Shown here one piece after another: positions 1 to 54,109 of a DNA stretch of 64,000 nt (position 1 is its first letter; every line of letters begins with the position of its first letter). The translations under genes and the position numbers were made by a program. Origin of the DNA: Mya arenaria (Eukaryota > Mollusca > Bivalvia > Myida > Myidae). The notes beneath the pieces were generated by a model. The model was not told the DNA's origin, ran no database searches, and was given only the letters and a program-made list of their open reading frames with translations. The stretch is taken from positions 36,235,406 to 36,299,405 of the forward strand of contig NC_069136.1 of the NCBI RefSeq assembly GCF_026914265.1, read 5' to 3'.

Positions 1-564
1 ATATGGCAATGCCATAAGTTTGTATAAAAATATGTATCTAGTAATTTATGATAAATCGAAAGTTCTATATAAAACATATACAAGTTTGATATAGCTATTT
101 GAACCTTGCGCACACATTCAATAAGTAACACTTTAAAACAGTATGGCCAACAGCCCATCACAAACTTTTATAAATATATAAGGACTGTAAGTGAACGTTT
201 ATGAGTACCCACTAACAACGTTTATTTTTAGTTTGTTTTACATGCCTAGCATGTTTCTCGAATGTCACAACCACACTTAAAATCATTATCCGTATTACAC
301 ACTGACACTGACTAGTTAATGTTTCACACAATGCAAATTTGACGGCACTATTTGCAAAATTACTTCTTGTGAATAGATGCATCGGAAAAACTATTGTCAT
401 TTGTTGCAGGTTTCAATGTGTTCTCCGTGCTCGAAAAAGTATCCAAACGTCCTATAACGTCCTATATATGAGAACCAAGGTGTATGTATGCAACATATTG
501 TGACACGACATACTAGCGAACAATACTTGAAAGGGGTGTGTATTTTTTAAGTCCTTGAACAAAT

Positions 565-570
565 TTTATT
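565..570 (-). terminator. Polyadenylation signal of copy A (AATAAA)
   Basis: Minus-strand AATAAA about 105 bp after the TAG stop, in a block aligned among the copies (TGCAATAAAATTTG). Confidence 0.6.
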
Positions 571-673
571 GCACACCGAAAAAAACCCACTTATAATCTA
601 ATAAAAATTCGTGTATTTTTTTTTTCATTTTCCACCTTATTTAGTGGCTTCTTTTCCTTGTCACTTTGTTTTG

Positions 674-3600
674 CTATAAGGCAAATCCAGTAAGTATTTG
701 TTTCCGCTTTGGCGCGTGAAATGACAAAGCAGAACACATTAACGTCATCACAATACCTACTGAAGTCACGTAGAAACACCATGATAATGAGCAGTCTCCT
801 GTAAAATGAAATAGCATTTTGTTACTACTGATTCAAAAAAACAAAAGGAATTATTATAAATATGTGGGAATATAATTTGTAAATATATTTAAAGCAAGGT
901 CTACAATGTGTATAAGTATATTAGATAGATCGAGCAGTAGTGCAAATCACTTAATCTAATGAGAATATCAAAATTCTATATTTTGTTGCACAAATATGTG
1001 CCTTTGTATTTCATATAAATTCAATGTTGTTGTTTTTGGAAGTTCCAAGACAATCAGAATGACGAAAACAGATTTTCATGTTACTTATTCTCAAGTTTCC
1101 TACCGTTGTTTATGCAACGGCATCGATGACGTTATTTGCACTTCGTTCTGTTTTATTTTGATACAAACTGCTTCATATGTAAGAATATTTCGGGTTTCTC
1201 TGAATTATACCAATATTCCTTATCTAACATGGTATTATTTCAGCTTTCCTTCCGCCTGGTTTACAAATCTTTGCTCGAGAAAAACGCAGTAGGCAGATAA
1301 ATTTGTGCAATTAAATGGTGCCTTCAGCCCGCAACACCGTGTAATTTCTATAAAGATCTCTTGATAAGCACAGCAGAAGTACTACAGGAATTCGAAATTC
1401 ATCATCGCGTTTTATTCAACTTTTAAAATATATTTGAATTACACAATGTTTTCATAGTTATCTCATACACATATTTCTAATCTTTTTTTATATTACGATT
1501 AATAACCGATTTTTCTGAAATATGTTTTTCGAACAAAACGAAATCTAGGTAAACTTTCAATTTGAACATGGTTTCATTTGTGATGATACTACCCATCCAA
1601 AATCAACTTAAATTAAGAATACATTAGCATACCAAGGATGTAAGACTTTGAGGTGTGTCCACACGCCTGGTTCACTTCCGGGCTGTCCCAGCCGTTTGGA
1701 TAGATACCCACACCCGTGCCCATCAGAAAACCTGAAATGGCTCAAGACCACAGTTATCTGCCCCCCGTTGACCAAGATCCGGATGTGAATACAGAAAAAA
1801 GAGTGCTTGTGTTCAAGTATCAATATTTTATTAGAATTGAATGAAAAAGAAGCAAAAAATGTTCTTTTTGCAGAGAACTTGACTGAATTTGACACTCTAT
1901 TGCAGAAATTGATAGTTTTCAATGTAAATATTGGTAAAATCATAGCTTGTGGAAGTCTGAAAATTAGTTGTTTGTAGCCGATTGACTTCCTGGCGGAAGG
2001 GTTATGTATTTGAACTCAATTTTGACAGTCGGGTCAATGGTCAACATGGTGTTTTCTTGTGATTATATTTTGTGTCTTGAATTGTTCTAGAGATGCCATG
2101 TCCTTGTTTTTCAATTGGGGTGTGTATCAAGTCAAAAGCCAGGTTGGTGTCTATATGAAACATATAGTTAAAATAACTGTGGTCTCACGCCAAATATAGG
2201 GTGTTACGTTCATAAGAAAACGGGCATTTGAAAAGTGATATAGCGAAAATCATGATATATTTTAACAGCAGAAGATAGTAAATACACTTGGATAATACCG
2301 CCATCTGTATCAGTTAGGTTTGCCTTAACAGTGTGCCTTTGAACAGAGTACATGTCGGGGGGTGAAAGCGAAAAGGTTCTTCTTCTTTATTTAATGTCAC
2401 TTAGAACCTTTTCGCATTCGCCCCACGATGTATTTGTTATATCATGGTCTTCGGGGCTTTTGACCCTTTAGTTTGTATTGTATATTTTACACTGTAAACC
2501 AATGATGATTACGGAAAATTGATGATTAGGGAGAAGAGGAGCCGGTGGTAAAAAGTATGAGTAAGAAAAGGGAGAGTAGGATAAGGAGGACTACATTTTG
2601 TTATTAAATGGACTGTTAATGACCGGTAGGAAAGTGATGGTTCACAAATTTTATTAGATTGCACCATGAACGCCCGGCCCCAATTTCTCGAAACTTCTTA
2701 AGCTTAACAGGCTTAAGTCGCTTATTCCATGTAGCCATAATACATACTGAAAATGGATTTTGATAAACGAAAAATGGTTTATTCTGATAATCATACAGAT
2801 TATTCCTACATAATTTCTAAAAAAGAAGAAGTAAATATGACACATTTTATAGAACAACAAAAATAGTGAGATTAGCTTGATCCTGTTATAAGGGACTTAA
2901 GAAATTTCGAGAAATTGGGGCCCGAATAAAAAAAAGGAATGTATATAAGAATACTGAGCTCAAAAGTCCATATCAGGTTACATTTTGATAAACTTATATA
3001 AGCTCTTGATATATTTAAACCAACTTGAACACAAATATAAGTGTATTCAATACTATAAGTTATATTTATTTACGCATATCAAACATATAAGTGACATGTT
3101 AACTAAAACTATTAATGCGACGAAAGTAAGCTTCATAAAGCAAAATAAAAACAATAATTAAAAGACATGCAAATATGGAAGAGGACAACATTCAAAAGCT
3201 ATGTTGACACTAGACATAAACCTTACGGGTCATCAGGCAGGGAAAATACTTGTTTCCTTATTTATAGTTATCTTTACACAATCGTTAACGAGTCAGATGC
3301 TTAATGAACATTTATGAACAAGAAATTCGTATTATGGAGACAAGAGACCCATTACCAAAGATCAACATTTATAAAACATTTAGGCATTTTTGATAGCTAT
3401 TCAGAAATATCAAATTTGGAACGGTCAACCTACAAAACTTAATAATAGGAACATAGCATTCCACCTTTCTGCTTTGCATGTGAAGAAGAAATTATAAGGA
3501 CATCGAGTCTGGTGAAGGTCAATTAATTGTTTGATGCAAAACAGCTTTTGTCCCAAATGGCGTTCAGGTAAAAGTGAATTTAGCTGTATTTTTACAGGGT

Positions 3601-4479
3601 ATATTATGTTTATGCTATCGTAAATTCTGAGCAAAGGACAGCCTTTTCATAAAACTAAGTATAATATACTTGTTTTTAGTTTAAACAAATTGAATAGGTA
3701 ACATACTAACTTGTTTACTAGATAAGATTACATTTTATATATAAGTGGATTTCAGACTTGTAGCAGTAACCTGTTATCAAGTTTTGACTTGCGGATTCTA
3801 CTTTGAAAATAACATGACAATTGATAAACCACATAATATTCCTGTTGTCACTTATCTATTAATAGATTTAGAATATTATCTTGTTAACCAGTAGCTGTAC
3901 ATAGAACTCATAATAAAAGGTAGGCGATGTTCTTTGATGACATATTGCGGCTGCCGTAAAAGGTTTATGGTTGAACGTATTCCTGTGCTTGTCTCTGTGG
4001 TAAATTAGAATATGAAACATCGAATTTAAACATAAGTTAAAACAGGGTGACACTATCTTTAATATTTATATACCTGAACACATTTGTATAATCCCTGCTG
4101 TTCTAGCAACCGTTGGTATGACCACACCCTTCACACAAACACCAAACATTGCTGTCAACGCGACAAGGAAACACAAGCAACAACCAACCCCGACAGTCAA
4201 GGTCGCTAGTTGCCACGAAACACTGGGAATGTCAGAGAATGCAGTGTATCGTCCGCATTCGTAAATTATCGTCAATTTTCCGTCATCGCCAATAGCCGGG
4301 TAATTACACCTACGGAAAATGCCGAAATATACCGGTATTGTTTGAGGGGTCTTTTCCGGATGATGAAGTGTCATCCGTCCTGTTATCCAGTGTGGCATGA
4401 AGTATCCAACACACGAAATGATTGCACTTAATATGGAACAAAATGCCCAAAATACTCCAACACCTGATAATCCAGACAT
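674..4479 (-). CDS. LHFPL6-like: LHFPL6-like tetraspan membrane protein, copy A
   Basis: Three exons on the minus strand: 4074-4479, 1633-1731 and 674-798, with GT-AG at every junction, both introns in phase 1, 209 codons plus TAG. The family is LHFPL tetraspan (PF10242): four-pass plasma-membrane proteins, some acting as auxiliary subunits in hair-cell transduction or receptor clustering; the LHFPL6 role is poorly known. Seen here: TM1 about 8-28, an extracellular loop with FGIFRRC (53-58) and ECGRY (74-78), IPS.SWQ (84-90), TM2 about 91-114, TM3 about 119-146, the signature GWDS at 149-152 followed by ACG, and TM4 about 172-196. The tail is short and basic (HAPKRKQ). The start MSGLSG is shared with B, D and E and follows no upstream coding similarity. 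AATAAA lies about 105 bp past the stop. Intron 1 carries two insertions absent from B. Family call is firm; the LHFPL6 subgroup is my judgement from remembered human LHFP. Confidence 0.93.
1195..1420. repeat. Conserved intron 2 module of the LHFPL array
   Basis: A block with TGAATTATACCAA, ATCTAACATGGTATTATT and GATAAGCACAGCAGAAGTACT lies 400-600 bp from exon 3. Counterparts are at 13,315-13,540 (B), 28,258-28,500 and 28,751-28,990 (C, doubled), 38,226-38,470 (D) and 46,680-46,905 (E). No shared reading frame. Confidence 0.55.
2355..2427. mobile_element. 73-bp foldback insertion in intron 1 of copy A
   Basis: Near-palindrome with arms GGTGAAAGCGAAAAGGTTCT and AGAACCTTTTCGCATTCGCC around a 21-nt loop, flanked by ATG on both sides (2352-2354, 2428-2430). 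Copy B reads ACATGCATTTATT across the site (about 14,065), i.e. an empty site. Confidence 0.6.
2676..2922. mobile_element. MITE, GGCCCCAATTTCTCG family, full copy in intron 1 of A
   Basis: About 247 bp, with terminal inverted repeats GGCCCCAATTTCTCGAAA / TTTCGAGAAATTGGGGCC. Absent from B at the matching point (near 14,305-14,315). No coding capacity, so a non-autonomous DNA element; superfamily not assigned. Confidence 0.7.
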
Positions 4480-4622: not shown

Positions 4623-4748
4623 TGAACATCATGCCTTTAACGCAACAGCCGCCTCTGAAATGATATTTTCTCTGTAAAGTTGTCAGAAGCTCTCAGCGAG
4701 TCACAGGCGGTTCAAAATCGATAAATGAATAACAAATTCCCTGTTAAT
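4623..4748 (-). promoter_or_regulatory. Conserved upstream block of copy A
   Basis: About 145 bp above the start codon. Plus-strand core elements are AACAGCCGCCTCTGAA, then GTCAGAAGCTCTCAGCGAGT, then a GGTT-AAAATCGAT stretch and CCCTGTTA. The same order and spacing recur above all five genes and in relics X and Y, so it is the best candidate for the core promoter or 5' leader. No TATA box is obvious. Confidence 0.6.
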
Positions 4749-7700
4749 ATAGAAAAACACAACTATTGGTTAGCTGAAAACTTCGTCGTTGGTGTTAAGA
4801 TAATTTATAATGAAGTTGTTAAAAATGTTAAGAAAAGCGTCGTTCGAAGTAATAATCGGTTAACCACATTAAACGTTTAAAACGGTAAAAACGTTAAACC
4901 ATCCGCAATCTCTTTTAATTCCAACTACATAAATACGTATAAATATTTACTTTTGCATGGATCCGTTCAAAAAGAAGAACGCTTACCTTTACAAAGCAAT
5001 AAAAAAATTAATAATTGGCTAAAATAAGTTCACTACAAACCCACCCCTTTCAAATAGTTTAGTGTCAAAGTGATCGATTTTGTCATAGTGTTATTCAGTA
5101 CGTCTACGTTCGGTTCAAATTGTGTTTTCGCTAGTAGTTAAAATACAAATAAAGCAGACACATCGTACTCCCTTTTTACTCATTCACATACAAAAGCGTG
5201 ATAGTTTGTAATGATACTCGATAAAAGGTTTAACTATGAGGTTTAAAGTTTAAAAACATATCAAAGGCAACCGTTTGAAACTTTTAATATTTATTTTTGT
5301 GGTTTGTATTAAATACTTTGTAAGTACATGGAAAATATGAAAATACAATTATATAGCTCATCACTTGTAAACATTTACAATTAAAAGATAACATAAGAAT
5401 GTAATATAGTACAATTTAATTAAGTAAACCAATTTTGTTCTGTTCTGGTATTCTTTGGTTCATATATCAACAAGACATTGTAAAATATAAAACAACTTAC
5501 TTTAAAGTCAAAGTAAACAAACTTGACAAAATTTATACCTTGAACAAGATATTAAAGAATTGAACAAGTTTAAAGACATAAAAACAGAATAGTTAAGGAC
5601 AAATGTATCAACATTATGCATATGCACGTTTTACATTCATACCACCAAACGGTGACAGAAAATCAGTAATACATTTAAATCCAACAACCTTAAAATGAAA
5701 CTCATATTCAGTAACTAGAGCACCTGGAGAAAATAAGAAAAAAAATGCTGACGGCGTATTCTAACAATAACTTAAACTTTAAGACCTAATAATATCTAAT
5801 GACTGATTACAAATAAAATGATATTATCAGACTGAATATATAATCCAATACACTTCGCGATAAGCGGAGTTGAACTAAAGATGTATATTGAATACTACAT
5901 TTAAAAGCATTTTAATTATATGCAAACATCTTTTATCCCTTTTTTTTCAAAAACATATTTACGTTCGTTTTAAAATGCTATTGTTTAAGAATTACATTAT
6001 TCTTATTTCGATTTTTCGTTGGTGGAAACATTTTGGATATTTGCTCAGGATGTGCTTCATATAACGGAATTAAAAAAGAAGATTATTCGCAGACAAAGTG
6101 TGTGTTTCAACTCGAATTGTCAGATAAAGTTAAATGAAGTTCATAATAAAAACAATACTTACAAAGCGTTTCTGCGTAAAATCCTTCCTTTTGATATGTT
6201 GTTATTTAGTTCGCTTAAAATGGCGTACATCGTTAAAAGTAATCAGGCGTCGACTACGGCTCATTAAATTCATCCATTAAGTCACCCGGTGAAATATGAG
6301 TATACCAACTTAACATATAATCGAAAGCCAACATGTTATCACATCAATATTTATTCAACTGGCAGTATTTGTATTTGACTTCTTTAAGTTGTGAACAAGA
6401 TCTATCAAAACCGTCACAAAGTACAACAAACATTGGTTCATAAGAAATTACCGTGATCAATTTTGATGGCTATGTAAGATACACGATGCAGCTTAAACAG
6501 ATTATTTGCAACATCTATTATTTATCGATGAAGAATTAGACTTTGGTTTGTTAGTACTATTGATATATAACTTGCAGCTCAAGTGATGAAGAACAATTCA
6601 AATATAACAAAATAATAACATCCAAATTGCATTTTAATTTTCCAAATTTTAATAAAACTCTTACCTTAAATTTCCATAACAATTTCAATACAATTTCGAA
6701 GTTTTAATATAAAGTTGAGCAAAAACAGTAATGGATACCTTTGCATCCTAACATTTCCGTATTTTTCAAATTTGCTATATTAATTCAAGTGATTTATACA
6801 ATATCATTACTAAAATATATCATTCATTCAATGTAAATTAATAAGAGCAGTCAAATAATCCATCCTGAAAAAGTATCGCCGAAAAAAATAGCAGTGTTTT
6901 CGCGGTTAATGCCATTAGACGGCCCATTGATAACCTCATGGGTATGCGTTGAAAGGGAATCATATATTCTACAGAGTAAAGATTTATGTTCTTGAAAAGC
7001 CATTTTGATATAAAGTCCACAAGTTGATGAATCAGTTTACATATTCTTACGCTGTTGAATTTGCTTAAACAATCTGGGGGTGGGGGGTTTCAAACGATAT
7101 TTCAACATAATAAAGACATACTCGTTAAAACACCAAATATTGATATAGTTTTACTCAGGCTGACTTTCTCCTCATCCTTTCCATACGAGTCAATTCGGTA
7201 GCAATGTCAATGCATCTTCGGGGTCTTTCACTGTTGTCAATATTAATGCATTCGCACGTTTGATTCTTCTTTTATGAGAGGCAAATACGAAAGGATTTAA
7301 CAATGTTCTTTGGATTTAATGGTGCGTGTCATTTGACCATAAACTACTAGACTTTCTACGGATTCTGAAAGTTGATAAAATACCTAAAACAATATTTGTA
7401 GAGTGGCTTCCATGAATAATCATTTTCTCCAAGCCGCAACACAAGGATGGAAGTTATTAAATTATTCTGCGATTGTAAATTACCTCATTGCTTCTAAACT
7501 GTTATACAGCTATGCAAGTTTAACTATTCACATAGGGTTATGAAATATTAATATAAAAAAACCTACAAAAACAAGGCTAGAAGTCGAAAACAATAAACAT
7601 AAACCACGTTCAACAGCCCAGGGTCAACACTAACGACAAAGAACATATAAAAACAGACATTCACAAACCAGAAACACAGAACGACGACAATAAACTCCAC

Positions 7701-12746: not shown

Positions 12747-15729
12747 CTATAAGGCATATCCAGTAAGTATTTGTTTCCGTTTTGGCGCGTGAAATGACAA
12801 AGCAGAACACATGAACGTCATCACAATACCTACTGAGGTCACGTAGAAACACCATGATAATGAGCAGTCTCCTGTAAAATGTAAAAACAAGTTGGTTATT
12901 ATCGTAAACGTAATTAAGTAATTATACACTATAAAGTTAATACTAATTCAAGTATCAATACAAAATAACTACATCTGATATTCAAAAAAACAAAAGAAAT
13001 TCTCATAAATATGTTGGAACTGAATTGATAAATAAATTAAAAGCAAGGTCTACAATGTTTATGAATTTCTAATGACCACAAACTAGTGCAAATGACTTAA
13101 TTGAATAAGATAATCAATTATATTTCATTGTTGAACATATATGTGCCATGGAATTGCATATTAAACATAGTTCTTTTTTTATAATCCACGACCATCAAAA
13201 TTATGTTACTCATTCTTAAGTTTCCTATGGTTGTTTATGCAATGGCTTCAGTGACATTTTTTGCACTTTCTTTCTTTTTGTTTTGATCCACACTGTCTTC
13301 AATGTAAAAATATTCCGGATTTTCTGAATTATACCATTATGCATTATCTAACATGGTATTATTTCAGGTTTCCTTCCGTCTGGTTAACAAATGATTGCTA
13401 GAGGAAAACGCTCTTGTCATATAAATGTTGTGCAATTAAATGGTGCCTACAACCCGCTACACCATAATATTCTATAAAGATCTCTTGATAAGCACAGCAG
13501 AAGTACTAGAGGAATTCGAAATTCATCATCGCTTGTTATTCGACATTTCAAATATAATTAGACAAAGTTTTTATAGTTATCTCATGAACATATTTCTTAT
13601 CTTCTTTTGATGATACGATTTATAACCGATTTGTTTTAAATTATGTTTTAAAAAGAAATATCCGATATTTGTTCGCAAGAAAAGAATACCTAGGTTTTAC
13701 CTAGCAGAGGTCATAATAGACAAGCGTTCATCCTGAACATGTTTTATTTGTAATAAAACTACCAATCTAAAATCAACCAAATCCAATATCCCAATAGCCT
13801 ACCCAGGTTATAAGACTTTGATGTGTTACCACACGCCTGCTTCACTTCCGTGCTGTCCCAGCCGTTTGGATATATACCTGTACCGGTACCCATCAGAAAA
13901 CCTGAAGTTAAGGGTGACACTTTCATAAAAATTGCTGCTTTTTATAAAGTAGTATAGCGAAAATCATGATACAGCTTTACAGCTGAAAAAAATACACTTC
14001 ATAATAGCGCCATCTGTATTAATATAAACGTTTGTTTCCTTAGCAGTGTGCCTTCAAACAGATAACATGCATTTATTATATTGTTGTTTTCGGGGCTTTT
14101 GACTCTGTAGTTTGTATTGTATATTTTTCACTGTATACAAAGAATAATAAAGGGAGATCGGTGATTAGGAAGAAGAGGAGCTGGTGGTGAGAAGAATGAG
14201 CAAGAAAATGAAGAGTAGAAAGAGGAGGAATACAAATGGTTATACAATGAAATGTTAATGACCGGTAGGAAACTGATGGTTCACAAATAAAATTAGAATA
14301 CACTATGGGCGTCCACATAAGAAAAGAAATGAATATGAGAATACTGGACTCGAAAGAACATATCAGTTTACATTTTGATTAACAAATTTAACCTCTGGAT
14401 AAACTTAAACCAATTTCAACAAAAATATGGGTTTATTGAGTAATATGAACTAAATTTAATTACGAATATCAAACATATAAGTGACATTTTAGCTAAAACT
14501 ATTATTGCGACGAAAGTAAGTTTCATAAAGCAAACTTGAAACAATTTTCAATATGTGACATGCAAGTATAGATGAGGACAACCTTTTAAAGCTATGCTGA
14601 CGCTACACATAAAACTTCCATCATTAGGCAGTGTAAATACTTGTTTCCTTATTTATACTTATCGTAATGCAATATTTAACAAGTCAGATGCTAAAATGAA
14701 ATTTATAAACATGAAATTCGTATTATGGAGACAAGAGACCTCATTACCAAAGATTACCATTGATGAAATTGAGGCATTTGAAAGCTGTTTAGAAATATGA
14801 ATATGGAAAGGTCAACCTACAAAAACTTAATAATTGGGACATAACAATTCCCCTTTCTGCTTTGCAGGAAAAAGAAGAAATTATAAGGACCGCGGTAAGT
14901 CAGGTAAAGGTAAATTAATTGTTTGATGCAAAACAAATTGAATAAGTAGCATAATAACTTGTTAACTAGATAAGCTTTGTGTTTCATTTTATATCAATGA
15001 GTTTCTGACTTGAAGCAGTAACCTGTTATCATGCTTTGACTTGCGAGTTCACTTTGAAAATAACATAATAACTGGTTAACCACATAACATTCATGTTGCC
15101 TGTTATATATAGATATATTAAGAATATTATCTTGTTAACCAGTCACTGTACGTAAGACTCATCATACAAGGTAAGCGATGTACTTTGATGACATATAACT
15201 GCTCTCGTAAAGATGTTTGGTTGGTCGTGTTCCTGTGCTTGTTTCTGTGTTAAATAAGAATATGAAAAATCGAATTTAAAAATTAATTAAAACTGGCTGA
15301 CACTATCTATAATATTAATTTACCTGAACACATTTGTATAATTCCTGCTGTTCTAGCGACCGTTGGTATGACCACACCCTTCACACAAACACCAAACATT
15401 GCTGTCAACGCCACTAGAAAACACAAGCAACACCCAACCCCGACAGTCAAGGTCGCTAGTTGCCACGAAACACTGGGAATGTCAGAGAATTCAGTGTATC
15501 GTCCGCATTCGTAAATTATCGTCAATTTTCCGTCATCGCCTATGGCCGGGTAATTACACCTACGGAAAATGCCGAAATGTACGGGAATTGTTTGAGAGGT
15601 CTTTCCCGGATGTTGAAATGTCATCCGTCCAGTTATCCAGTGTGGCATGAAGTATCCAATACACGAAATAATAGCACTTAGAATGGAAGAAAATGCCCAA
15701 AATACTCCAATACCTGATAATCCAGACAT
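12747..15729 (-). CDS. LHFPL6-like: LHFPL6-like tetraspan membrane protein, copy B
   Basis: Exons 15324-15729, 13803-13901 and 12747-12871 (406, 99 and 125 nt), GT-AG, phase-1 introns, 209 aa. The nearest sister of A: within exon 1 they differ at nine residues, five of them in positions 38-51 of the first extracellular loop. Exon 2 reads GTGTGIYPNGWDSTEVKQACG and keeps the GWDS signature; exon 3 ends ILTGYAL then TAG. Like A, it has a canonical AATAAA downstream (12646-12651). An in-frame ATG lies 10 codons upstream (15759), but the MSGLSG start is the one conserved across the array. A glutamate at residue 80 replaces the alanine found in all other copies, in the otherwise invariant RYTAFSDIPS stretch. 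No disabling change seen, so probably functional. Confidence 0.93.
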
Positions 15730-15880
15730 ATTCGTAGTAGTTTCACAGAAATATATCACATTTTAAAAATCCATTTTAGAATTACGACTGGATATATGCT
15801 TTAGCACACGTTCTATAGAACACCAGGGTATGAAATCTCATTTTCCGAATGCGTTTATTTTCCGATACACCGAAGCGAGT

Positions 15881-34376: not shown

Positions 34377-34600
34377 TTGCACCACCCAACACCTACAGTC
34401 AAGGTTGCTATTTGCCACGAGGCACTAAGAATGTCGGAGGATGCATGCAATGTATCGTCCACATTCGTAATTATCCGTCATTATTATTATTGGCAATTTT
34501 CCGTCATCGTCAATGGAAGGGTAATTTCACCAATGGAAAATGCCGAATTGTACCGGAGTCGTTTCAGAAAAAGGTTTCACATACCAAAACTCCACTTGCG
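34377..34600 (-). pseudogene. Relic Y: internal fragment of LHFPL6-like exon 1
   Basis: Reading the minus strand gives recognisable but interrupted similarity to the middle of exon 1 of A-E, roughly the stretch from FRRCNYP to the start of TM2. Both ends of the exon are missing, and a short ATT-rich insertion near 34478-34490 breaks the frame. Just left, 34310-34350 resembles the 3' flank of copy E near 45545-45580, so a deletion probably joined the downstream flank directly to exon 1, removing exons 2 and 3. The conserved upstream block survives to the right at 34756-34863. Long plus-strand frames here are antisense shadows. Confidence 0.85.
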
Positions 34601-34755
34601 AAGTATAGCCGCTAAATATATGCTTTAGTATTAGTATTTAGTAAAACATCATGTTAAGAAATATCGTATTCCGAGTGTGTTTTACATTAAATACGCCTTT
34701 TTGATTTCTTTAAAACAGTATTCCGTTTGGTAAGGGAGTGAAAGGAGAAGGGAGT

Positions 34756-34863
34756 GAACAGCCTGCCGTGCAATGTAACAGCCGCCTTTTCTCACTGCAG
34801 ATGTCAGAAGCTCTCAGCGAGTCACAGATGGTCCAGAATCGATCAACGAAATGAATGCCCTGT
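34756..34863 (-). promoter_or_regulatory. Orphan upstream block in relic Y
   Basis: Keeps GTAACAGCCGCC, GTCAGAAGCTCTCAGCGAGT and GATCAACGAAATGA above the broken exon 1 fragment, with part of the region between the first two motifs deleted. Confidence 0.55.
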
Positions 34864-37339
34864 CTTATCCCAATAGCGCTGTCGTGGGAAAGCTATAGCA
34901 TATAACAGCAAACTTTGAATAAGTAGTAATAAAGTTGTTGAAAATGTGTGGAATGGGAATGCTCAAGTACGTTAGCCGTGAACCGTATTTCAAATTAAAC
35001 TGTTAAACCGTTTATTCGTTGACTTACAACTATGAACCCACAAGCTGCCAACATCCATCAAGTAATAAAGTATCAAATTCATTTGTTAAAAAGAAAACTT
35101 TCTTTTTCCACCTTGACTATCTTAATTTGCTTTAAAAAAGATGCGAATGAGCAACCTCTATATCCTCATAAATATTCCCAACCTTCAAGTGTTTTACTAC
35201 CAAATAACCGATCCTTGAGGACACCTGATAAGAGTTTTATATTTCTTCATTGTGTGTGATGTACGTGCCATGATTATAAAATATCCAAACAATGATTTTA
35301 TATGTTCATTACATCACTTAAAACCTTGCATGTCACAGTGACTTCAAACCTTAAACTTTTTAACGATTATTGTTGAAGTTTAAAAGAATCAATGAAATTC
35401 ATTTGGTTTTTGCGCCCTTAACTTTCACTAAAGTTTTTCTTACATCAATAGCTTTACTACAAAACAGCTATTTGTCATACATATCTGGTTATTTTTGTGA
35501 TAAATGAGTATGCCTGTGTCGCCATAACGTAACATTTTGATAACATAACCAAACATTGATATCATATTTCGATAACATTTCTGAAATGTTTTAGTGTCAG
35601 GGTTTATTAATTCAGTCAGCGTGTTACTCAATACTAAAATACTTCATCGAAAGAATGAAATGGTCCTTGTTTATACGAGTAGTTATAAGTAATATTATAA
35701 GGCATAATGTTATCATATGCCAACTTATAGTAATCTCTTTTTTCTCATTTATAAAATAAAAATCCCTTACAAATTATCATCGCCCTAAAATGTGTCACGA
35801 AATCGGTTAGGCAATTAAACTCAACAACTTCAAAATGAAATTCATTTCAATTGGAAAAATGATGAAAACTAAGCCTATGGCGAATTCTTGAAGTACCTGA
35901 CACTATAAAATGTAATGATATATCTCAAAAACGTTTAATTAAAAACAAATTGAAATATCCATATCAGACGGATGGTACAATACACTTTACCCATAGTTTA
36001 AGTTCAATATCACGTTTACGAGCATTAAGATACGGAAACGTTTTAATTCTCGTTTTATTCATTTACCTGTTAAAAATAATTTGTAACTCGTTGTTAAAGA
36101 AATTGGTAAACTGTTAGTGTGCCTATTTCAATCATTTGTGGTTTTAAACTTGTTTATTTTGTGCGTTATTACGAAAATTCAGAAATTATCAGAAAGCGGT
36201 TTTTTTAGTTTTAACAGTGTAACCCAAGCACGAATTGGCAGTTAATATCTAATAAAACGACAACAAAACCTTATTGTCTATAATGAACACTATATTACCT
36301 TTCTACCCTCCAGGTTTACGAAGAGAATAACTAATTTGAACCAAGTTCTTGCAATGGCTGTTTTTAATTCCTACCATATAGCGAAACTTTTTCAAGATTT
36401 TTCATTTTGAGTGATATAGAACTAAATGAAAATATATTTATACCACAGACAAATACATTAATTCATTAAACTCGACTCAATAGTTCAATTGTGTTCATAA
36501 TAAATATTAAAAAACAACAACAATCCTTTGCATCTGTCGTTTTGTATTGTTTAGATGACCAACAACAGAATATATTTATAACGCTCGTAAAACAAAATAC
36601 TTTAGAACAGAACATTTTTCAGTAACAAACGGTTATTGCAACATCGATGAAGTAAACCTTTTTGACGTCTATAATTTTAATAAAAACTCCTCAAATACAG
36701 TTAAAATACAGCAAAGAAATTGCAATACTTGCAGATCACCATTTCGTGTTCGACAACTGCTGTTTCTATCAAAACGAACCCACGCCTCAAGCAAGATAAC
36801 TTTCTTATATTATTCACAAGTAGCAGAACTAATTAGCTTAGATTTCCCGAGAAACTTACTTAATCTTATTGCAAGCTCTGTAAATAGAATTTTCTTTGCT
36901 AATACACTATAGTGGGAAGATTATCATCAGTTAGAATTAACATAAAATTAACAGTTGTAACATTTTAGACGTTTCAATTGTTATTTAAGTTTTCGTAGAC
37001 TTCGACTGACAGCCGATTGGAAGTCCACGTCATGTAATTACGGGTTTCATATATAACTTAGTAGTTCTACGTAGGGAAGAGTAATGGATTTTATAATCTC
37101 ACTGAAGTCTTAGTCTTAAGCAGTTTAAACTATCTGTCTTTGGCTGCTTGTGTGGCTTATAGGTAAATGTTTTATACGTGCAGGTCTAAATGATATTGAT
37201 GATGAAACAAATTTTATACATCACGAAACGACGCACCCAAAACGACAAATAACTTTCGATAAAATGTTTAATATTTTTTATTGTATATTGATATCACATG
37301 TAAAAGATGTGCTCTACGAGTAGTATAAAAAAGGAAATG

Positions 37340-37966: not shown

Positions 37967-39704
37967 CTATAAGGCATACCCGATAGGTATTTGTTTTCGT
38001 TTAGGCGCGTGAAATGACAACGCAGCACACATAAACGTCATCACAATACCTGCTGACGTCACGTAGAAACACCAGGATAATGAGCAGTCTCCTGTAAAAC
38101 AGTGTAAACATATGTGGTTTTTAATTATAATCAGTAAAGAAATTATATGATTTACATATTAAATTGAAAAAGCTTTATGCTACACATATATGTGATAGTT
38201 TCTATGATTTCTGTGTAGGACACTTCCGTATTTCCTGATTTATATCAACGGGTCATATTTAACATGATATTGTTACAGACGTCCTTCTGTCTGATTTATA
38301 ATAGAATATAAATGCTTGCTCGGGAATTATGTTGTTTGCTGGTAATATGATGCGATTTTATGGCATTTGCAGCGTGTGATTTCCTAAGCAAAGCGTGATA
38401 AGCACGTTTAATATCAAAGTAGCACTTCAGGAAATCGGAATTCCTAACCTTAATGTGTTTCAACAGGATAAATAAAGTTTGCATTGAGCAAAGTTTTGCT
38501 TGTAGCTAACAAAGTTATCTCATACAAACTTTCAGGTTGCTATTGGGAAGGATAATTACCGAATGCTTTAAAAATATGTTTAACTTCCAAAACAGATTTT
38601 GCACGAAACGTTTGACTTAATCAAAAACTACAAAACATAAGTTAATTGTTTGTCTTAATTTAGTTACCTCTATATTACAAATACACTTCCAACATTCATA
38701 GTTTATACCCAGATAACCTACCCAAATTATAAGACTTTGAGGTGTGACCACACGCCTGCTTCACTTCCGGGCTGTCCCAGCCGTTCGGATAAATACCCAC
38801 ACCCGCGCTCATCAGAAAACCTAAAATGTGTTGGTTTATTAGTAAATTCAAGTCACATTCAGACGCATTGTTATTGTATGTAAACCGCGTTCATATACAG
38901 AAATGCATCGCACAAGGTATAATAAGAATCATTATTGTAGTTGTTGTAGCTTGGGAGCAAATGTATCGTTATCAGAGAATCAAATGCTCTCATTCACACC
39001 TCTTCTCACCTAGTGCTGCTATTTTTCATACAATGCAATCTGATATTGCAAAATAACTGGCAGAGAAAATGCGAGGTGCCGCTCAATTGAAATTCAACTG
39101 GTTAAATATTGCAAGGTGTTTGCTTGTTTTCTGTTTTAGTTGTTTTGTATTTGTCTTTCGCTCTTAAATAACGTATAATATTAATAATAATGTTCATTGA
39201 TGATAAGAGTCTTAATGGTGATAGTTACTACGTCATATAAACAATTTATTTTATTATAATTTATTACATGATTAAGATATTTTGACATTGTTTATTACCT
39301 GAACACATTTGAATTATCCCTGCTGTCCTAGCAACAGTCGGTATGACAACACCCTTGACACAAACACCAAACATTGCGGTCAATGCCACAAGAAAACACA
39401 AGCAACATCCAGCCCCGACAAGCAAAGTAGTTATTTGCCAAGAGACACTAGGTATGTCGGAGAATGCAGTGTATCTTCCACATTCGTGAATTATCGTCAA
39501 TTTTCCGTCATCGCCAATGTACGGGTAGTTACACCTACGGAAAATGCCGAAGTGTACTGGAACTATTTCAGGGGACTTTCCTGGTTGGTGAAGCGTAATC
39601 CGTCCAATGAACCAGTGTGGCATAAAATATCCAACACACGAAATAGTAGCACTTAATATGGACGTGAATGCCCAAAATACTCCGATACCTGATAATCCAG
39701 ACAT
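37967..39704 (-). CDS. LHFPL6-like: LHFPL6-like tetraspan membrane protein, copy D
   Basis: The most compact copy: exons 39299-39704, 38722-38820 and 37967-38091, GT-AG, phase-1 introns, 209 aa. Intron 1 is only 478 bp against about 1.4-2.3 kb in the sisters; most of the intronic blocks shared by A, B, C and E are missing. Exon 1 has HWFIGRITL where sisters have HWITGR, loop residues GKSPEIVPVHF, and intact FGIFRRC, ECGRY and IPSVSWQ motifs. Exon 2 reads GFLMSAGVGIYPNGWDSP, keeping GWDS; exon 3 ends QIPIGYAL then TAG. ATTAAA lies about 95 bp past the stop. The conserved upstream block sits at 39878-40008. No disabling change seen. Confidence 0.93.
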
Positions 39705-46105: not shown

Positions 46106-46388
46106 TCACTTGTTTTGCAACAAGGCATATCCAGCAGGTATCTGTTTCCACTTTGGCGCGTGAAATGACAAAGCAGAACACATTAACGTCATCACAATAC
46201 CTGCTGACGTCACGTAGAAACACCATGACAGTGAGCAGTCTCCTGTAAAATAATGTTTTAATTTATGGTTAATAAATCATAATCAATATACAAATGATAT
46301 TATTATCGTATTCAATTGGCAATTTAAACCATCCACTATTGAATCCTCTCTCTCTCTCTCTCTCTCTCTCCCGCCCTCCCTCCCTCCC

Positions 46389-46444
<56 letters not shown>

Positions 46445-49400
46445 GCAACTACCTTATTCGAATAAGACTTTCAAACTTGTATACCCATCTTGCACATGTT
46501 TGTGCCATTTTGATAGATTAATTAACTGTTTTTGTTTTTAGTAAGTCCAATACAATCCAAGATGAGGAGAACGGACGTGCTTGTAATACATTCTTAACTT
46601 TTCAAGCATTGTTTGTAGGATAAATTATTACGTCCTCAGTTTGGTTTTGTTCCACATTGCTTCCTATATAGGACTGTTCCGTATTGCCGGATTTATATCC
46701 GGCCGCATCTAACATGGTCTTAAAAACAGGCATCCTTCGGTCGGTCTGTTTGCTCGGGAATGATGTTGTTTGCTGGTAATATGGTGCGATTTTATGACAT
46801 TTGCAGCGTGTGATTTCCTAAGCAAATCGTGATAAATACGTTTAATATCAAAGTAGCACTTCAGGAAATCGGAATTCCTAATGTCAATTATTTTAACGGG
46901 ATAAATAAAGATTAAATTGAACAATTGCGTGGTGCTTACAAAGTTTTTGTTGTTTTTTTCTCATTTATTTTCAACATATATCATATATATCAAGACTATG
47001 CATACACTTTTTAACATTTCTATGTTGGTTAGAACATTTTTCTAAAACACACACACATACACACACAAACACACAAATACACGCATACACACACACATGC
47101 ACAGACACACGCACACATACACACACACATACACAAAGTGATGTCCCTTTTGTGTTCAAAAATATTACTTTATTTATTTCTGGATTAAAAACCATGATGT
47201 AATATGCGTTGTTTAGGCTAGATGTGTCTTCCTATGTATATAAGTTTTTTAAACTATTGAGTACTTCCCATTTCTTCTGTTCTTCTTTTTGTTTCATACT
47301 TATCATTGTTAAATGTTATTTGCTCTTCTATTTTTATTATTAATCTCAGATAATGCAAAAATGCATCGAAGGACAGTTGTCTGTCATTACATTTTGTTGA
47401 GTTGATATCAAATTTCATTAAGATTGTTAAATGTTATTTGCTCTTCTATTTTTATTCTTAATCTCAGATAATGCAAAAATGCATCGAAGGACAGTTGTCT
47501 GTCATTACATTTTGTTGAGTTGATATAAAATTTCATTAAGATAATTAGAAAATTACAGATATTACTGTACTTGCTTTTCCTGACAATGCCTAATAGGGCT
47601 TCTTGTTTGTAAATTGTTATATTCATTGACGTCGATGCAATAAAGTTGTTTAATTTATTCCATAGTTCTTGTGTTTTTTGACACTCCCAATACAAATGTT
47701 CAATTGATTCTACATTTGAATTGCAAAATGTGCATAGACTACAGTCGACTAATTTGAGTTTAAACAGAAATTGGTTCGTCGGTACTATTCTCATAAGGAA
47801 TTTGTAATTGAAGCTACACAATGTTGTATCTATCGTTGATTTGTAAATGTTACCATAAATGGTTTTCCATTCCAAATTTTCACTTGTATCAAGATTTACT
47901 TTCCATTTTGTTTCAGAAGTCGGTTGAAAACTTTTTTGCAACAACAGTGAATACATAAGTTTATTTGTTTGTTTTGATGTTTCAACTTTTCCTTTAAATT
48001 GTTGTCTACTAGTATGAACGATCCCATCCGAGTCGTAACATGCATTGGAATTGATCGAACAAGTGTTTGGTACTTGATAAAATCTGTGTTTCTTATGTTG
48101 TATAAGTATTCTATTTGATTAAATTCATAAAAATTGTTTGTTCTGTAGTCAAAAAATATGTTCTAGATACTTAATACCTTTTTCATACCATTGTTCAAAA
48201 GACAGAGTGTTTCCTATATTGCAAATTGTATGGTTATTCCATATCACTGTTTTAGCTGTTTTCACTGAGTTTAAGTCATAAATTTGTTTAATTTTACTCC
48301 AGAATTTAAGGACATCATTAATGAATGAACCTTCTTTTGAAAGTTTGTTTATAAGGACATTGTTTAATTCACATTTAAAAACCAATTCATTTCCATAATT
48401 GATAAGCTTCTGTTTAAGAAATATTTTCCATTGGCTTTTGTTTTTGTCGTCTAAATATCTTTTTACCCATACAGCTTTAATGGAGTAAAGAAAGAGTTCG
48501 ACATTTGTAAGTTTCAGTCCACCGTTTTCGTAGTTTTTGGTACATAATATCTCGTTTTATTTTGTCGGGCTTTTTGTCCCAAATGAATTTGAAAATAGAC
48601 TGTTTAATGTGTTCAATAATATATTTGCTTGGATTAGCGAGAACAGTAAATGGGAAGATGATTTTTGGTAAGGCGTATGTGTTGCTTACAAAGTTATCTC
48701 ATACAAATTTCCGGGTTCTTGTTTGGAAGAATAATCATCTACCGATGCTTTTAAAGTGTATTTAACTTCCAAAGGAAACGCTTGACTAGATTTAACCTCG
48801 AAACAAAAGTTAAATGTTGTTCTTTAAAGGTTTCATTTATAACACAAATGCACTTCCAACTTTCAAATATCCGAATTGCCTACCCAAATTATAAGACTTT
48901 GAGATGTGCCCACAAGCCTGCTTCACTTCAGGGCTGTCCCAACCGTTTGGGTAGATACCCACACCCGCGCCCATCAGAAAACCTATAAGGTGTAGCTTGC
49001 TATATGTTATGCGATAAAACGTGAAATAATATGGCGATAAAATACAATAGCGATAAAATAGAGAAGTGATACATATGTCATGAACCGATAAAGTTTAAAT
49101 CAAAAAAGTTTCTCATATTTCATTGAAATGTAACCTTTTTTAACAATAAAGCATATGATGTGTGTACAAATAAAAAGTATATACGCGTTATTTATATTTT
49201 GACGCTTTTTAGGTGGGGTATTCGTGGCCACGTGGCTATTAATTAAAGAAAGCTAATTTAATATTTTCTGTACACAGTTTCATCATTAAAGTCAATTAAT
49301 TTCAATATGGTTACGCCTTCAAATTAAAAAAGCATGAACCAATTATACAGATCTTTAACATAAACATGCACACAGTAATCGGGCCTGGTAAACACTATTC

Positions 49401-50845
49401 TTTAATGTGACATTCTTATTAAAAATCAATACATACACATGTATAACAAACATCAATTTTGACTGATAAACCTTCAACTTCTTACTAAATAATGCATTTA
49501 CGGAAAATAGGAGTTACTGCTAACAAGTTTGTAGACCTGTATTTAAAAACAGAACACGCAAAAACATTAAATGATTGGTGAATGCTAAAAGATTTACTGT
49601 TATCTACTATAGTCTCAAAAGGTGGAAATACCGTGTTTTATGCACATTTCTTTCAAATTAAACTCGGTATCCTTCATAAGAACTATTGTTTTCGACATTT
49701 ATTTATCCTTTTTGGAATATTAAAACAATAGTATTAATTGTGGTAAATCTTATTTGAGAGTAAGAGTGTATCTTTAACTCCTATCCAAAGGTTCGTCTTG
49801 TTAATCCTAAGATTCATTTAACAAATGGGCAATAAAGAATAAGGAATCAGTCTTATGGCGACTACATAATGTCCATTACATAGGATCAACAAACAATTCC
49901 AAAAGATTTATATTTTATTAACACTTTGAAAGAATAGGACTGAAATCGACATGTTTGTAGTGGGTTATTACTGTGTTGGTAACAACGAATTTAGTAATTT
50001 TAAGGCATATGTACTGTGTTTCTGCGTTGCATGTAAATAAAATATTCCTACGATCAAAGAACCTCGAGTCACGTTATATAAAGACACATTTTTATTTTAA
50101 GTAAAATAGCTAACTTTCTCCAATCGCGTTTGTGTAAACAAATACATCTCACAAGGTCTGATAAGAAACAATAGAAGTTGTAGTTTGTGACAAAACATAT
50201 CGTTTTCAGAGTAACAGATGTTTCCATTTACATCACAAAACAAATACTACCATTTTTCACACAATGTAATACGAAATTGCAAAAAGAACTGACAGAACAG
50301 TTGCGGGGAATAGATTTATTGAGTTTCAACTAAAGTTATACTGGAAAGAGTCAGCATAATGTTAGCAGAAAAGATAACAAGATGGGTTGTTGGCCGACAG
50401 TAGCTTTCATTAGTTAATGAAACACAAAAGGTTTATTACCTGAACACATTTGAATAATCCCTGCTGTCCTAGCAACCGTTGGTATGACAACACCCTTGAC
50501 ACAAACACCGAACATAGCGGTCAAGGACACTAGTAAACACAAGCAGCATCCAACTCCGACAGTCAAGGTCGCAATTTGCCAAGAGACACTAGGAATGTCG
50601 GAAAATGCAGTGTATCGTCCACATTCATGACTTATCGTCAATGTTCCGTCATCGCCAATGTACGGGTAATTACACCTACGGAAAATGCCGAAGTGTACTG
50701 GGGTTATTTGAGGGGACTTTCCTGGATGTTGAAGCGTAATCCGTCCAGTTATCCAGTGTGGCATAAAATATCCAACACACGAAATAATTGCACTTAATAT
50801 GGACGTAAATGCCCAAAATACTCCAACACCTGATAATCCGGACAT
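46106..50845 (-). CDS. LHFPL6-like: LHFPL6-like tetraspan membrane protein, copy E, with extended C terminus
   Basis: Exons 50440-50845, 48884-48982 and 46106-46242, GT-AG, phase-1 introns, 213 aa. The position of the TAG stop in copies A-D reads TTG here, so translation runs on through LLQNK to a TGA, adding four residues after the shared GYAL end. The tail also has HAPKWKQ in place of HAPKRKQ, removing one basic residue. The membrane core differs mildly (CCLCLLVSLTAM, against CCLCFLVALTAM). Intron 2 (46243-48883) has been enlarged by a 1.7-kb LINE insertion and a long CT microsatellite. Intron 1 has a TTAA MITE. An ATG 15 codons upstream (50890) is in frame but not conserved. The open frame argues for a working gene. 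Confidence 0.9.
46346..46442. repeat. CT/CCCT microsatellite in intron 2 of E
   Basis: Two long CT runs separated by a CCCTCCCTCC stretch. The open frame across it is a repeat artefact. Confidence 0.95.
47046..47135. repeat. CA microsatellite within the LINE 3' region
   Basis: Interrupted CA/CACATA tract of about 90 bp near the 3' end of the LINE. Confidence 0.9.
47306..47539. repeat. 117-bp tandem duplication at the LINE 3' end
   Basis: Two head-to-tail copies (47,306-47,422 and 47,423-47,539) differing at only a few bases, so much younger than the LINE decay or arisen during its insertion. Confidence 0.85.
49402..49777. mobile_element. TTAA MITE family 1, copy in intron 1 of E
   Basis: 376 bp, TTAA at both ends, start TTAATGTGACATTCTTATT, end AGTAAGAGTGTATCTTTAA. 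Inserted on the other side of a shared intron block than the copy in C, so the two insertions are independent. Confidence 0.7.
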
Positions 50846-51031
50846 TGCCGTAATAGTTTCAAAGAACTTATTCACAGGTAGATAAATCACATTTTAAAAC
50901 TCCATATTTGAAAAATAAGTGCTGTTACTTGCCGTCTAAGAAATCAGTTTAAAACATCTAATTTTTATTCAAAACACTATTGATGTTCCGAAACTACGGT
51001 TCTTTTGAGTGATTTAAAGGTGAGAAGCAAT

Positions 51032-51162
51032 GAACATCCTTTCCTGAAAGGTAACAGCCGCCTCTGAAGCGAGTTGTTTCCATTACAGTGTCAAAAGCTC
51101 CCAGCGTTACACTGGCGGTTTAAAATCGATCATAGGAATGAAAAAATGCCCTGTCAAAACAG
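51032..51162 (-). promoter_or_regulatory. Conserved upstream block of copy E
   Basis: Starts 187 bp above the ATG with GAACATCC, GGTAACAGCCGCCTCTGAAG, a partly degraded AGCTCCCAGCG middle motif, AAAATCGAT and TGCCCTGTCAAAACAG. Confidence 0.6.
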
Positions 51163-52309
51163 ATTAGCACTGTGATGTGTGAGTTGAAAAAAAGACATCA
51201 TCGGTTAATTATAAAAACAGCCCTTGCTGCTTTTAAGTGTTATTGTTCTAACAACATGAGTTTCAAATATGTATTACAGTTTTATTTAAACAGTATTTTA
51301 AGTCCATAAAAAGGTTAATTCCAACGTAGCAACATCCTTGTCATAGAAATAATTGTGTCCTTCTGAGTTTGTTTTATTGTTTCAAAACCGACTGTCTTTA
51401 TCTGTATTCAAAATGCGCAATATATTACTGTTACAACAAAACGGCAAACCTTCCTTGAGCAACTGTTTAGTGTCCAATTAAAATACCAAGAACAAAATGT
51501 ATTACTTCACGCATCACTTCACTGAATTAACACTACATTAATCATGTATGGCCCAACAGTGCCTTGAAAAAGTACAAATCAATGATCTATATCATCCTTT
51601 GAAATACTCCTAAATTCAGATATTTTACAAAACGACAGCTACGTGAGACAAAATAATAGTGTTTAATATTCCCACTTAGTTTTGTGATATATGAGAATGC
51701 GATATGACATGTCAAGTTGATAAAATAGCTAAATAATGATATCATACGTCTATAACATCGCTTAAAACTGCAATGTTAACGCCTTATACTGAGTTAAAAT
51801 GACCGATATTTTGTTATTAAATTGCAAATAATATTACAAGCGGCCTTTGGTTTTGACGGATTTTAATGGACCTCGCAGACTTATTTTACCCATATTACTA
51901 AACATAAATCTCTGAATTGAAAATAACGTAACGACTGCGGGTGCTTTAAGGTCAAAGGAAATGAGGTATAAGTTAATCTCTTTGATCGCGTTACGTCAGA
52001 GACAAATCCTTCTTGCAGATATACTTTATATTTTAACAAACTAATTTTAGACATAATAATGTTAATAATGTAGTATGTTAGTTTTAAAAAGAACGAAAAA
52101 GTAGCCGCATCAAATCATTTGATCTTATTACGAGTATTGCTTTGGATATTTTCCGTCAAAATCTTGAAGATTAATTGATTATTTAGTTCGTTTTATATAA
52201 CAAACGCGCATACGTATTAATTATTCTTTTGTATTCAATAACAAATAAATGATTAAGTATCTATTATAACAACTTAACAATTTTAAAATACATTACAAAC
52301 CCTTCATAA

Positions 52310-52665
52310 ATCCATATACAATACGTATCGCAAACAACAGTGGTCAGTATTCCACTCTAGTGCAGTTCGGCATTATTTCACTGTGCTGACGTCACGTCAT
52401 AATAAGTATCATTGCGCGATGTTAAATTTACGTCATAAAACAAAATAGTTCATCATTAAAATGATATTTCTTATAAAATTGTGTATATTTTATGTGATTT
52501 TAACCAGTATTTCACGGACCTTAATCTCTGGTCCGTGGTAATTTATATAATAATAGGGTGAAGCACGGCAGGTTGATCTGGAATGTCATGTTCGACGGAT
52601 TTTTGCTAGCGCCCCGTGAAATCCAAATCTGAAAAATCCACTCAAGTCGAATACGACATTTAAAG
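52310..52665. mobile_element. E-specific insertion, MITE-like
   Basis: The E and D upstream spacers align on both sides (D about 41,160-41,210), but E has about 350 extra bp. Its ends share an imperfect inverted motif (GTATTCCACTCTAGTG / GTATTCGACTTGAGTG). It contains a TGACGTCACGTCA box and an internal CACGGACC...GGTCCGTG hairpin. Limits are uncertain. Confidence 0.5.
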
Positions 52666-54106
52666 TGCAGTACTAATAACCTTATTTTATTGATATTATG
52701 AACAAGAACAGGTGAGCAATATCAGTATAATTATTATGAACAGGATATATCAATGGGTTCATTAAGTGCATCAAACAATAAAGTTTAAATTTATCATCAG
52801 TGTCACAGCTTATATATATGGTAAACATTCACGATAACAATACGACTACTATTACAAATGGGTTCGTTATGTATCGGAATAGGACGAGCTTAACAGTATT
52901 TCTTTTAACTCATTTGACAAAACAAAAATCCTTGAATTGAAAATAATATAACGCCTCAGAGTGGCTTTAGGTCAAAGACAATATTCTTTACGGTTTTCTC
53001 TCAGATCGCGTTAAGTCAAATTTAACATTATACAAAAATCCTGCTCACAAATATCCTCGATATTTATAACAAGAAATCTTTACACATGAATGTTTTTAAT
53101 TCAGTTTGTTAGTTAAGTTTGAAAAGTAGAGATGGAGCATCCACATCAAAAGATAATTTATGACCGGCGTTGCTTCTGAAAGATACTGGCAAAATCTAAA
53201 ATAAAAGATTTATCGGTCAAAATATTAAACTCTTTTTATATTCATATGTTTAAAACAACACATTGAACTTCATTATAGTAACTTAGATATCTCTTTAAAA
53301 TTTTCAATACCTCCATTTATATTATTGATATTGTAAACAAGATAATTGAGAAGTTCATTAAATGCAACTAACAATAAAGTTAAAAGTAACCTAAACAACA
53401 AAAATATCGCTGTGTATTTATGGTAAACAAGTATCTCTCTCTATATAACGATTACGAAAAGGTTACAACAATAAATTCGTCAATTATGTTATTTTATTCA
53501 TGGATTTCCAAAATTGCTGTGTTTTCAAACGAAATTTGCCTTCAGGGGCAATTTCACACCAGAACCTTCGATAGGGCAAATTTGTGACTGCATGTATTTC
53601 ATGTAATATAATCGTAACATATGTAAAACTAACACAAAGGTCTTATTTATTACAGAGAAATACCATATCTGGAGTTTAGACAGGTTGGACACGGTGCAAT
53701 TTCATGTACTATGAACTAAAAATATATTACTCATAGAAATACAATATTTACAATATAATACACTGAATTACTATCATCACCAAGTAAGGTCGTCATTATC
53801 GGATGTACCCGTGCAGTGAAAAAAATCAATAGCGCCAAAATTATTAAATGTTTCGTTTCGCGCTACCCGACCGACTCACATAACATCTATAGACCTTCTC
53901 ATCAAACTAGAACAACTCGGATATTTACGCCATACTACGAGTCTCGGATGAATGCCGGTGCATTAGTAAACGTAGCTCGTAAAAGCAAGAATAATAATAT
54001 TATATAAGTGTAGTGTTTTCAGATGTACTTTTAATGTTTGAATTGTTTCCCCGTGAAGTATTTCGTTTCATAAACATTAATATTCGTATTAGTGAAGTCC
54101 TTATGC

Positions 54107-54109
<3 letters not shown>

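What the first reader, a model, noticed from the sequence alone, without database searches (positions are those of the whole stretch)
1..54080. Tandem array of five intact LHFPL6-like genes plus at least two broken units
Seen: five minus-strand genes with identical exon sizes and phases, embedded in repeated spacers, together with relic units X and Y and possibly W. Known: LHFPL proteins are a small conserved tetraspan family, and vertebrate members sit as single genes at separate loci. A local expansion of the LHFPL6-like branch, with births and deaths in one window, is unusual and suggests a lineage-specific role.
Basis: partly seen in the sequence, partly recalled or inferred. Interest (0 to 1): 0.75.

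Follow-up and report, generated by a model that had tools for sequence, protein, structure and literature searches.

The report
Tandem LHFPL6-type gene array in clam
One chromosome of a clam (most likely the soft-shell clam) carries a row of five intact copies and several dead copies of a membrane-protein gene related to the human gene LHFPL6; it is a real but ordinary kind of local gene expansion whose one striking feature is that the copies differ mostly in one short outward-facing loop.

Summary
Five intact three-exon minus-strand genes (A-E) encode LHFPL tetraspan proteins. They form one clade (98/98) beside human LHFPL6+LHFPL1 (93/95; human letters recalled), and dN/dS is 0.13-0.27 in 10 of 10 pairs. 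Genome searches found no other LHFPL6-type locus. Two broken units lie in the window: X (20.2-25.9 kb, exon 1 lost) and Y (34.4-34.9 kb). The array also runs about 33 kb left of the window, with three or four more dead units; two share one premature stop and truncation, so a dead unit was itself duplicated. A-B and C-D synonymous divergence matches noncoding divergence, which favours birth-and-death over gene conversion. New: the copies differ mainly in residues 36-48 of the first extracellular loop (12 of 13 variable; 0 of 20,000 permutations), and an array-only block lies about 145-275 bp upstream of the start codon. Species: most likely Mya arenaria. Function (auxiliary subunits) is inferred. 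Known kind of event, modest interest.

The parts
674..4479 (-). Gene A (exons 4479-4074, 1731-1633, 798-674), 209 aa, intact
12747..15729 (-). Gene B (exons 15729-15324, 13901-13803, 12871-12747), 209 aa, intact
27554..31318 (-). Gene C (exons 31318-30913, 29352-29254, 27678-27554), 209 aa, intact; Asp at residue 20 in TM1 (Ile or Thr in the other four) and Gly at residue 151 (Asp in the other four)
37967..39704 (-). Gene D (exons 39704-39299, 38820-38722, 38091-37967), 209 aa, intact, the most compact copy
46106..50845 (-). Gene E (exons 50845-50440, 48982-48884, 46242-46106), 213 aa, intact; stop codon shifted, four extra C-terminal residues
20167..25910 (-). Broken unit X: pieces colinear with unit A (intron 1 at 20167-20296 and 20802-21323, upstream block at 21932-22155, spacer at 22880-25910); no exon 1 found
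   Evidence: the 20802-21323 piece matches only units A and B elsewhere in the genome search
34364..34888 (-). Broken unit Y: fragment of exon 1 with a stop and an insertion, plus the upstream block (34747-34888)
4623..4753 (-). Array-specific block about 145-275 bp upstream of the ATG of gene A; counterparts B 15861-16028, C 31502-31627, D 39878-40009, E 51031-51163, Y 34747-34863, X 21932-22155
50702..50740 (-). Codons 36-48 of gene E: hypervariable stretch of the first extracellular loop (same codons in A-D)
53219..54111 (.). Right end of unit-type spacer homology (upstream spacer of E against that of D, 42336-43153)

Best explanation
A single ancestral LHFPL6/LHFPL1-type gene on contig C15 was multiplied head-to-tail by repeated unequal crossing-over or segmental duplication of a unit that holds coding exons, introns, an upstream block and spacer (start codons of neighbouring intact copies are now 8.4-15.6 kb apart). 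Some copies were lost to deletion, nonsense mutation or insertion, and at least one dead unit was duplicated again, leaving about ten or eleven units, five of them intact and under purifying selection. [The units, their states and the selection are shown; the crossing-over mechanism is inferred.] Inferred: each intact gene makes a four-helix claudin-like tetraspan that works as its vertebrate LHFPL relatives do, as an auxiliary subunit that assembles with, traffics or tunes a partner membrane protein. The conserved body keeps the shared core function, while the variable beta1-beta2 stretch of the first extracellular loop gives each copy somewhat different outward contacts; the shared upstream block drives related expression of the copies.
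For: Unit structure and colinear spacers; PF10242 in 5 of 5; match of the E protein to solved LHFPL4 (E 6e-17, residues 5-195) and LHFPL5 (3e-13); monophyly 98/98, beside recalled LHFPL6/LHFPL1 93/95; dN/dS 0.13-0.27 in 10 of 10 pairs; A-B dS 0.193 against noncoding 0.189, C-D 0.257 against 0.271; 10 exon-1 matches genome-wide, 10 of 10 in this array; dead units P1 and P2 share a stop and a truncation and differ at 15 of 179 sites; variable residues cluster in 36-48; array-only upstream block, 7 of 7 matches within the array.
Against: No expression, proteomic or population data. The loop's mean pN/pS is 0.91, which fits relaxed constraint as well as diversification. The upstream block also persists in dead units, so its conservation may partly be youth rather than function. 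The AlphaFold2 model of the exon-1 part is poor (pLDDT 46.5), and hydropathy did not resolve four separate helices. The human sequences that anchor the subfamily call were typed from recall, and the tree program warned of long branches meeting (C16+LHFPL2 with the C4 pair).
Confidence: 0.72

Rival explanations
1. The copies differ only in neutral ways and are kept for dosage; the loop is simply a tolerant, unconstrained stretch, and no copy has a new task.
For: Loop mean pN/pS about 0.91, near neutral; the rest of the protein is strongly conserved, proteins 84-92% identical overall; other local duplications lie nearby.
Against: Five copies have kept intact frames at dS 0.19-0.56, while at least five sister units died in the same array, which suggests, without proving it, that the survivors are not freely interchangeable.
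Confidence: 0.4
2. Assembly artefact: separate haplotypes or repeated contigs were laid side by side.
For: The reference comes from one field-collected clam (PMC10663159 passage), presumably heterozygous; the segment right of the array (53.0-72.6 kb against 93.9-113.6 kb, 92-98% identical) could be such a false duplicate.
Against: A-E differ at dS 0.19-0.56 and by 17-27% in aligned noncoding sequence, with unequal introns; no pair looks allelic.
Confidence: 0.03
3. Concerted evolution: the copies are old and kept alike by gene conversion.
For: Exons are more alike than introns in the A/B against C/D/E comparisons.
Against: Synonymous divergence equals noncoding divergence in A-B and C-D and exceeds it in the other pairs, the opposite of exon-limited conversion; the protein tree and the exon-1 DNA tree hold the same unrooted splits of the five genes, AB|CDE and CD|ABE.
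Confidence: 0.06
4. The genes are retrocopies of one another or of a gene elsewhere.
For: None found.
Against: Both introns are kept at the same positions and phases in 5 of 5 genes, and spacers are copied with the genes.
Confidence: 0.005

Closest known systems
Vertebrate LHFPL6 (LHFP) and LHFPL1
   Same: 43-46% identity of A-E to recalled human LHFPL6 over 204-207 columns; shared motifs such as FRRC, ECGRY, YP.GW
   Different: Five tandem copies in place of single genes at separate loci (vertebrate arrangement recalled, not from a call); the clam proteins have a longer, variable beta1-beta2 stretch in the first extracellular loop; A-E fall outside the LHFPL6+LHFPL1 pair
LHFPL4 (GABA-A receptor partner) and LHFPL5 (hair-cell mechanotransduction subunit)
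   Same: Same family by sequence; E protein residues 5-195 match LHFPL4
   Different: Only about 24-29% identity; the clam's own members of that branch are on C14, not in this array
Claudins and TARP/gamma-type auxiliary subunits
   Same: LHFPL5 was modelled on claudin structures and calcium-channel gamma 1 (PMC6092121, passages seen)
   Different: No direct test made here; the sequence search returned only LHFPL chains (7 of 7) at E 0.01 or better
Expanded gene families of bivalves (e.g. inhibitor-of-apoptosis genes in oysters, PMC8917759, listing and start of abstract only)
   Same: Expansion of a gene family in a bivalve
   Different: Here a small tetraspan family, one branch expanded, with live and dead copies side by side

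Membership tests
LHFPL family (PF10242) | Profile match above curated cut-off | tested here: met
   5 of 5 exon-1 ORFs, 75-83 bits against a cut-off of 25.2; five exon-2 places on C15 also pass in the genome profile search
LHFPL family (PF10242) | Near whole-length alignment with a solved LHFPL protein | tested here: met
   Gene E protein residues 5-195 of 213 align with LHFPL4, E 6e-17, and 6-196 with LHFPL5, 3e-13; only E was run
LHFPL family (PF10242) | Four membrane helices | tested here: inconclusive
   Hydropathy of E gives three clear peaks (residues 16, 107, 186); TM3 is not resolved from TM2
LHFPL family (PF10242) | Two conserved cysteines in the first extracellular loop | tested here: met
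   C58 and C75 invariant in 5 of 5 and in the two fully conserved Cys columns of the 16-row alignment; that they form a disulfide is inferred
LHFPL family (PF10242) | Extracellular beta-sheet (claudin-like fold) | tested here: inconclusive
   Model of the exon-1 part shows helix, four strands, helix, but mean pLDDT is 46.5
LHFPL6/LHFPL1 branch | Groups with LHFPL6/LHFPL1 and not with LHFPL2 or LHFPL4/5 | tested here: met
   93/95 support, 16-row tree, human LHFPL6, 1, 2 and 5 typed from recall, LHFPL4; no other mollusc in the tree
Tandem gene array by local duplication | Same orientation, shared introns and spacers, copies confined to one locus | tested here: met
LHFPL auxiliary subunit function | Association with a partner channel, receptor or transporter | not testable with these tools
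   Needs experiment

The most novel reading that the evidence does not exclude
The array is a small diversity-generating set: five LHFPL6-type subunits with one conserved body and an extracellular hairpin under copy-specific diversification, so that a clam can assemble partner complexes (a channel, a receptor, or the proton/organic-cation antiporter to which vertebrate LHFPL6 has been linked) with different outward specificities.
Probability: 0.2. Interest if true: 0.65.

Novelty: new member of a known kind. Interest (0 to 1): 0.38.

Why it matters
The role of LHFPL6 is poorly understood (my view; of 25 papers listed only a few centre on it). A genome that carries five natural variants, alike except mainly in one extracellular stretch, offers a ready comparison set for finding what that surface binds. 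The array is also a clear case of birth-and-death evolution in which a dead unit was copied again. If it proves to be only dosage or drift, it is an ordinary bivalve gene expansion.

Tried and rejected
Rejected: haplotype artefact for A-E (divergence too high); retrocopies (introns kept); gene conversion as the main force; the idea that the spacer repeats are all array-specific (one is a dispersed repeat). Positive selection on the loop was looked for and not shown: mean pN/pS is 0.91; five of ten pairs (AB, BC, BD, CE, DE) exceed 1 and five do not, on 13 codons, without correction for multiple hits or a significance test. A fold search with the exon-1 model was not run because its confidence was too low. 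Literature: searches for LHFPL/bivalve, lipoma HMGIC/mollusc, LHFPL6, LHFPL/evolution/invertebrate/tetraspan, lipoma HMGIC/oyster, LHFPL/tandem/gene duplication/lineage-specific and LHFPL/clam listed no paper on an LHFPL expansion in a mollusc; one search listed 25 of 71 hits and 10 of 84. One oyster paper names an LHFPL3-like gene in a miRNA table (PMC7488030, passage). In the clam genome paper PMC10663159 'LHFP' and 'lipoma' occur 0 times in the main text. The library is open-access only.

Full report
WHERE IT IS. The window is C15:36235406-36299405 of a 1,216,080,610-base genome in 18 contigs. The Mya arenaria reference is described as 1.22 Gb in 17 chromosome scaffolds (PMC10663159, passages seen), which fits 17 large contigs plus contig 18 of 17,947 bases, the size of a mitochondrial genome. 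The same paper gives 19,815 bp for the mitochondrial genome with its tripled D-loop, so contig 18 would be a shorter form. [quoted passage not shown] this is inference from sizes only.

THE OBSERVATION. Self-comparison of the window shows offset copies of one unit; three Markov shuffles gave none. Five ORFs hit PF10242 (5 of 5). The spliced genes A (4479-674), B (15729-12747), C (31318-27554), D (39704-37967) and E (50845-46106), each on the minus strand, have exons of 406, 99 and 125 bp (137 in E) and phase-1 introns. Introns differ widely in length (intron 1 478-2342 bp, intron 2 630-2641 bp). Intron 2 of E carries a reverse-transcriptase remnant (zf-RVT).

BROKEN UNITS. Y (34.36-34.89 kb) keeps a piece of exon 1 and the upstream block. 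X (20.17-25.91 kb) is colinear with A over intron 1, upstream block and spacer, but between intron piece and upstream block it is about 340 bp shorter (952 bp in A, 609 bp in X) and no exon 1 was found. One X piece has 3 matches in the genome: itself, A and B. Left of the window lie more: P3 (exon 1 in two pieces with an insert between, C15:36228390-36229118), P2 (exon 1 at 36217714-36217891, with exon-2 and exon-3 pieces further left that may be one or two units) and P1 (exon 1 at 36205113-36205279, exon 3 at 36202134-36202256). P1 and P2 share a stop at the codon for residue 26 (counted from the alignment) and end at the same place, about codon 60, and they differ at 15 of 179 exon-1 sites. 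An already broken unit was therefore most likely duplicated. From the last exon relic to the end of E's spacer homology the array spans about 87 kb (window terms -33.3 to +54.1 kb).

WHAT THE GENES ARE. The E protein aligns over residues 5-195 with solved LHFPL4 and over 6-196 with LHFPL5. In a tree of 16 rows A-E form one clade (98/98) and join recalled human LHFPL6+LHFPL1 (93/95, not starred). The gene on C16 joins recalled LHFPL2 (99/98), the C14 genes join LHFPL4/5 (100/99), and the C4 pair stays unplaced (67/50 with the LHFPL2 branch, with a long-branch warning). BLAST identity of A-E is 43-46% to recalled LHFPL6. The exon-1 DNA search gave 10 matches, 10 of 10 in this array, and the PF10242 search found LHFPL only on C4, C14, C15 and C16 (21 matches), so no second LHFPL6-type locus was seen; a search with the spliced protein did not complete.

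SELECTION AND MODE. Pairwise dN/dS is 0.13-0.27 (10 pairs), dS 0.19 (A-B) to 0.56 (B-C). Noncoding divergence is 0.189 for A-B and 0.271 for C-D, close to dS 0.193 and 0.257. In the other eight pairs noncoding divergence is lower than dS (e.g. C-E 0.276 against 0.335, D-E 0.215 against 0.350); part of that is probably that only the best-kept stretches align. No pair shows the low dS within divergent flanks that exon-limited conversion would give, so birth-and-death is favoured.

WHERE THE COPIES DIFFER. 53 of 209 aligned residues vary; 12 of the 13 residues 36-48 do. No permutation of 20,000 reached that in any window of 13. Mean pN/pS is 0.91 there and 0.17 elsewhere; in the loop five of ten pairs exceed 1. 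By alignment this is the beta1-beta2 part of the first extracellular loop; [quoted passage not shown] The low-confidence model puts strands at 32-38 and 46-52. The stretch was chosen after looking, which the window-wide permutation allows for; relaxed constraint and diversification cannot be told apart.

UPSTREAM BLOCK. About 130 bp, roughly 145-275 bp before the ATG in A, align in the five genes and in Y, P1, P2 and X; P3 did not align well there. A genome search with A's block gave 7 matches, all in the array (A, B, C, D, E, Y, P1; P2 and X were not returned). Between A/B and C/D/E the block differs by about a quarter, against about two thirds in the 25-bp bin on its 3' side and 36-63% on its 5' side. 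A promoter or 5' untranslated region is the natural guess; it is untested.

HOW IT PROBABLY WORKS. LHFPL4 and LHFPL5 act as partners of receptors and channels (PMC5640807 and PMC6092121, starts of abstracts in the listing; passages of the latter). LHFPL6 has been proposed as a component of a proton-coupled organic-cation antiporter on knockdown evidence, though its expression in HEK293 cells had little impact (PMC9413594, abstract and Discussion read). By analogy A-E are auxiliary subunits. I put about 0.9 on the array and birth-and-death account, about 0.6 on an auxiliary-subunit role in general, and 0.2 on copy-specific outward specificity.

NOVELTY. I found no listing on an LHFPL expansion in a mollusc in seven searches (named in Tried and rejected, two of them with partly shown lists). 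Gene-family expansions are a known kind of event in bivalves. I score it as a new member of a known kind.

Noticed in passing
window 53016-64000 and beyond to the right (L020, L021, L030-L032): A block starting at 53,016 (in E's far-upstream spacer) recurs about 41-43 kb to the right, 98.4% to 92.2% identical in successive pieces. It may be a recent tandem duplication or unmerged haplotypes.
   Followed up: partly
window 62702-63340 and copies at about +75806-76411 and +105472-106110 in window terms: A 213-aa ORF that looks like part of a methyltransferase-type protein (my reading; Pfam gave 0 families) is itself present in three local copies next to the LHFPL array.
   Followed up: partly
C4:67322472-67351712 (L016, L017): A pair of close LHFPL genes about 28 kb apart that joins neither LHFPL2, LHFPL4/5 nor LHFPL6 with good support; possibly an invertebrate branch.
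   Followed up: partly
C14:22845878-22885172 (L009-L013): Three LHFPL4/5-type genes or pieces in a row on the plus strand, a second LHFPL cluster in the same genome; for the first only exon 1 was found.
   Followed up: partly
window 43801-44131, also 29819, 49403, 56967: A 331-bp dispersed repeat with 3917 first-look candidates in the genome, 40 of them scored.
   Followed up: partly
window 20456-20752: A short tandem repeat of about 38 bp period, copies about 96% identical, inside the span of unit X.
   Followed up: no
C15:36228587-36228949 (L019), inside exon 1 of unit P3: A GC-rich insert of about 350 bp whose ends look like an inverted repeat, like a small DNA transposon (read by eye).
   Followed up: no
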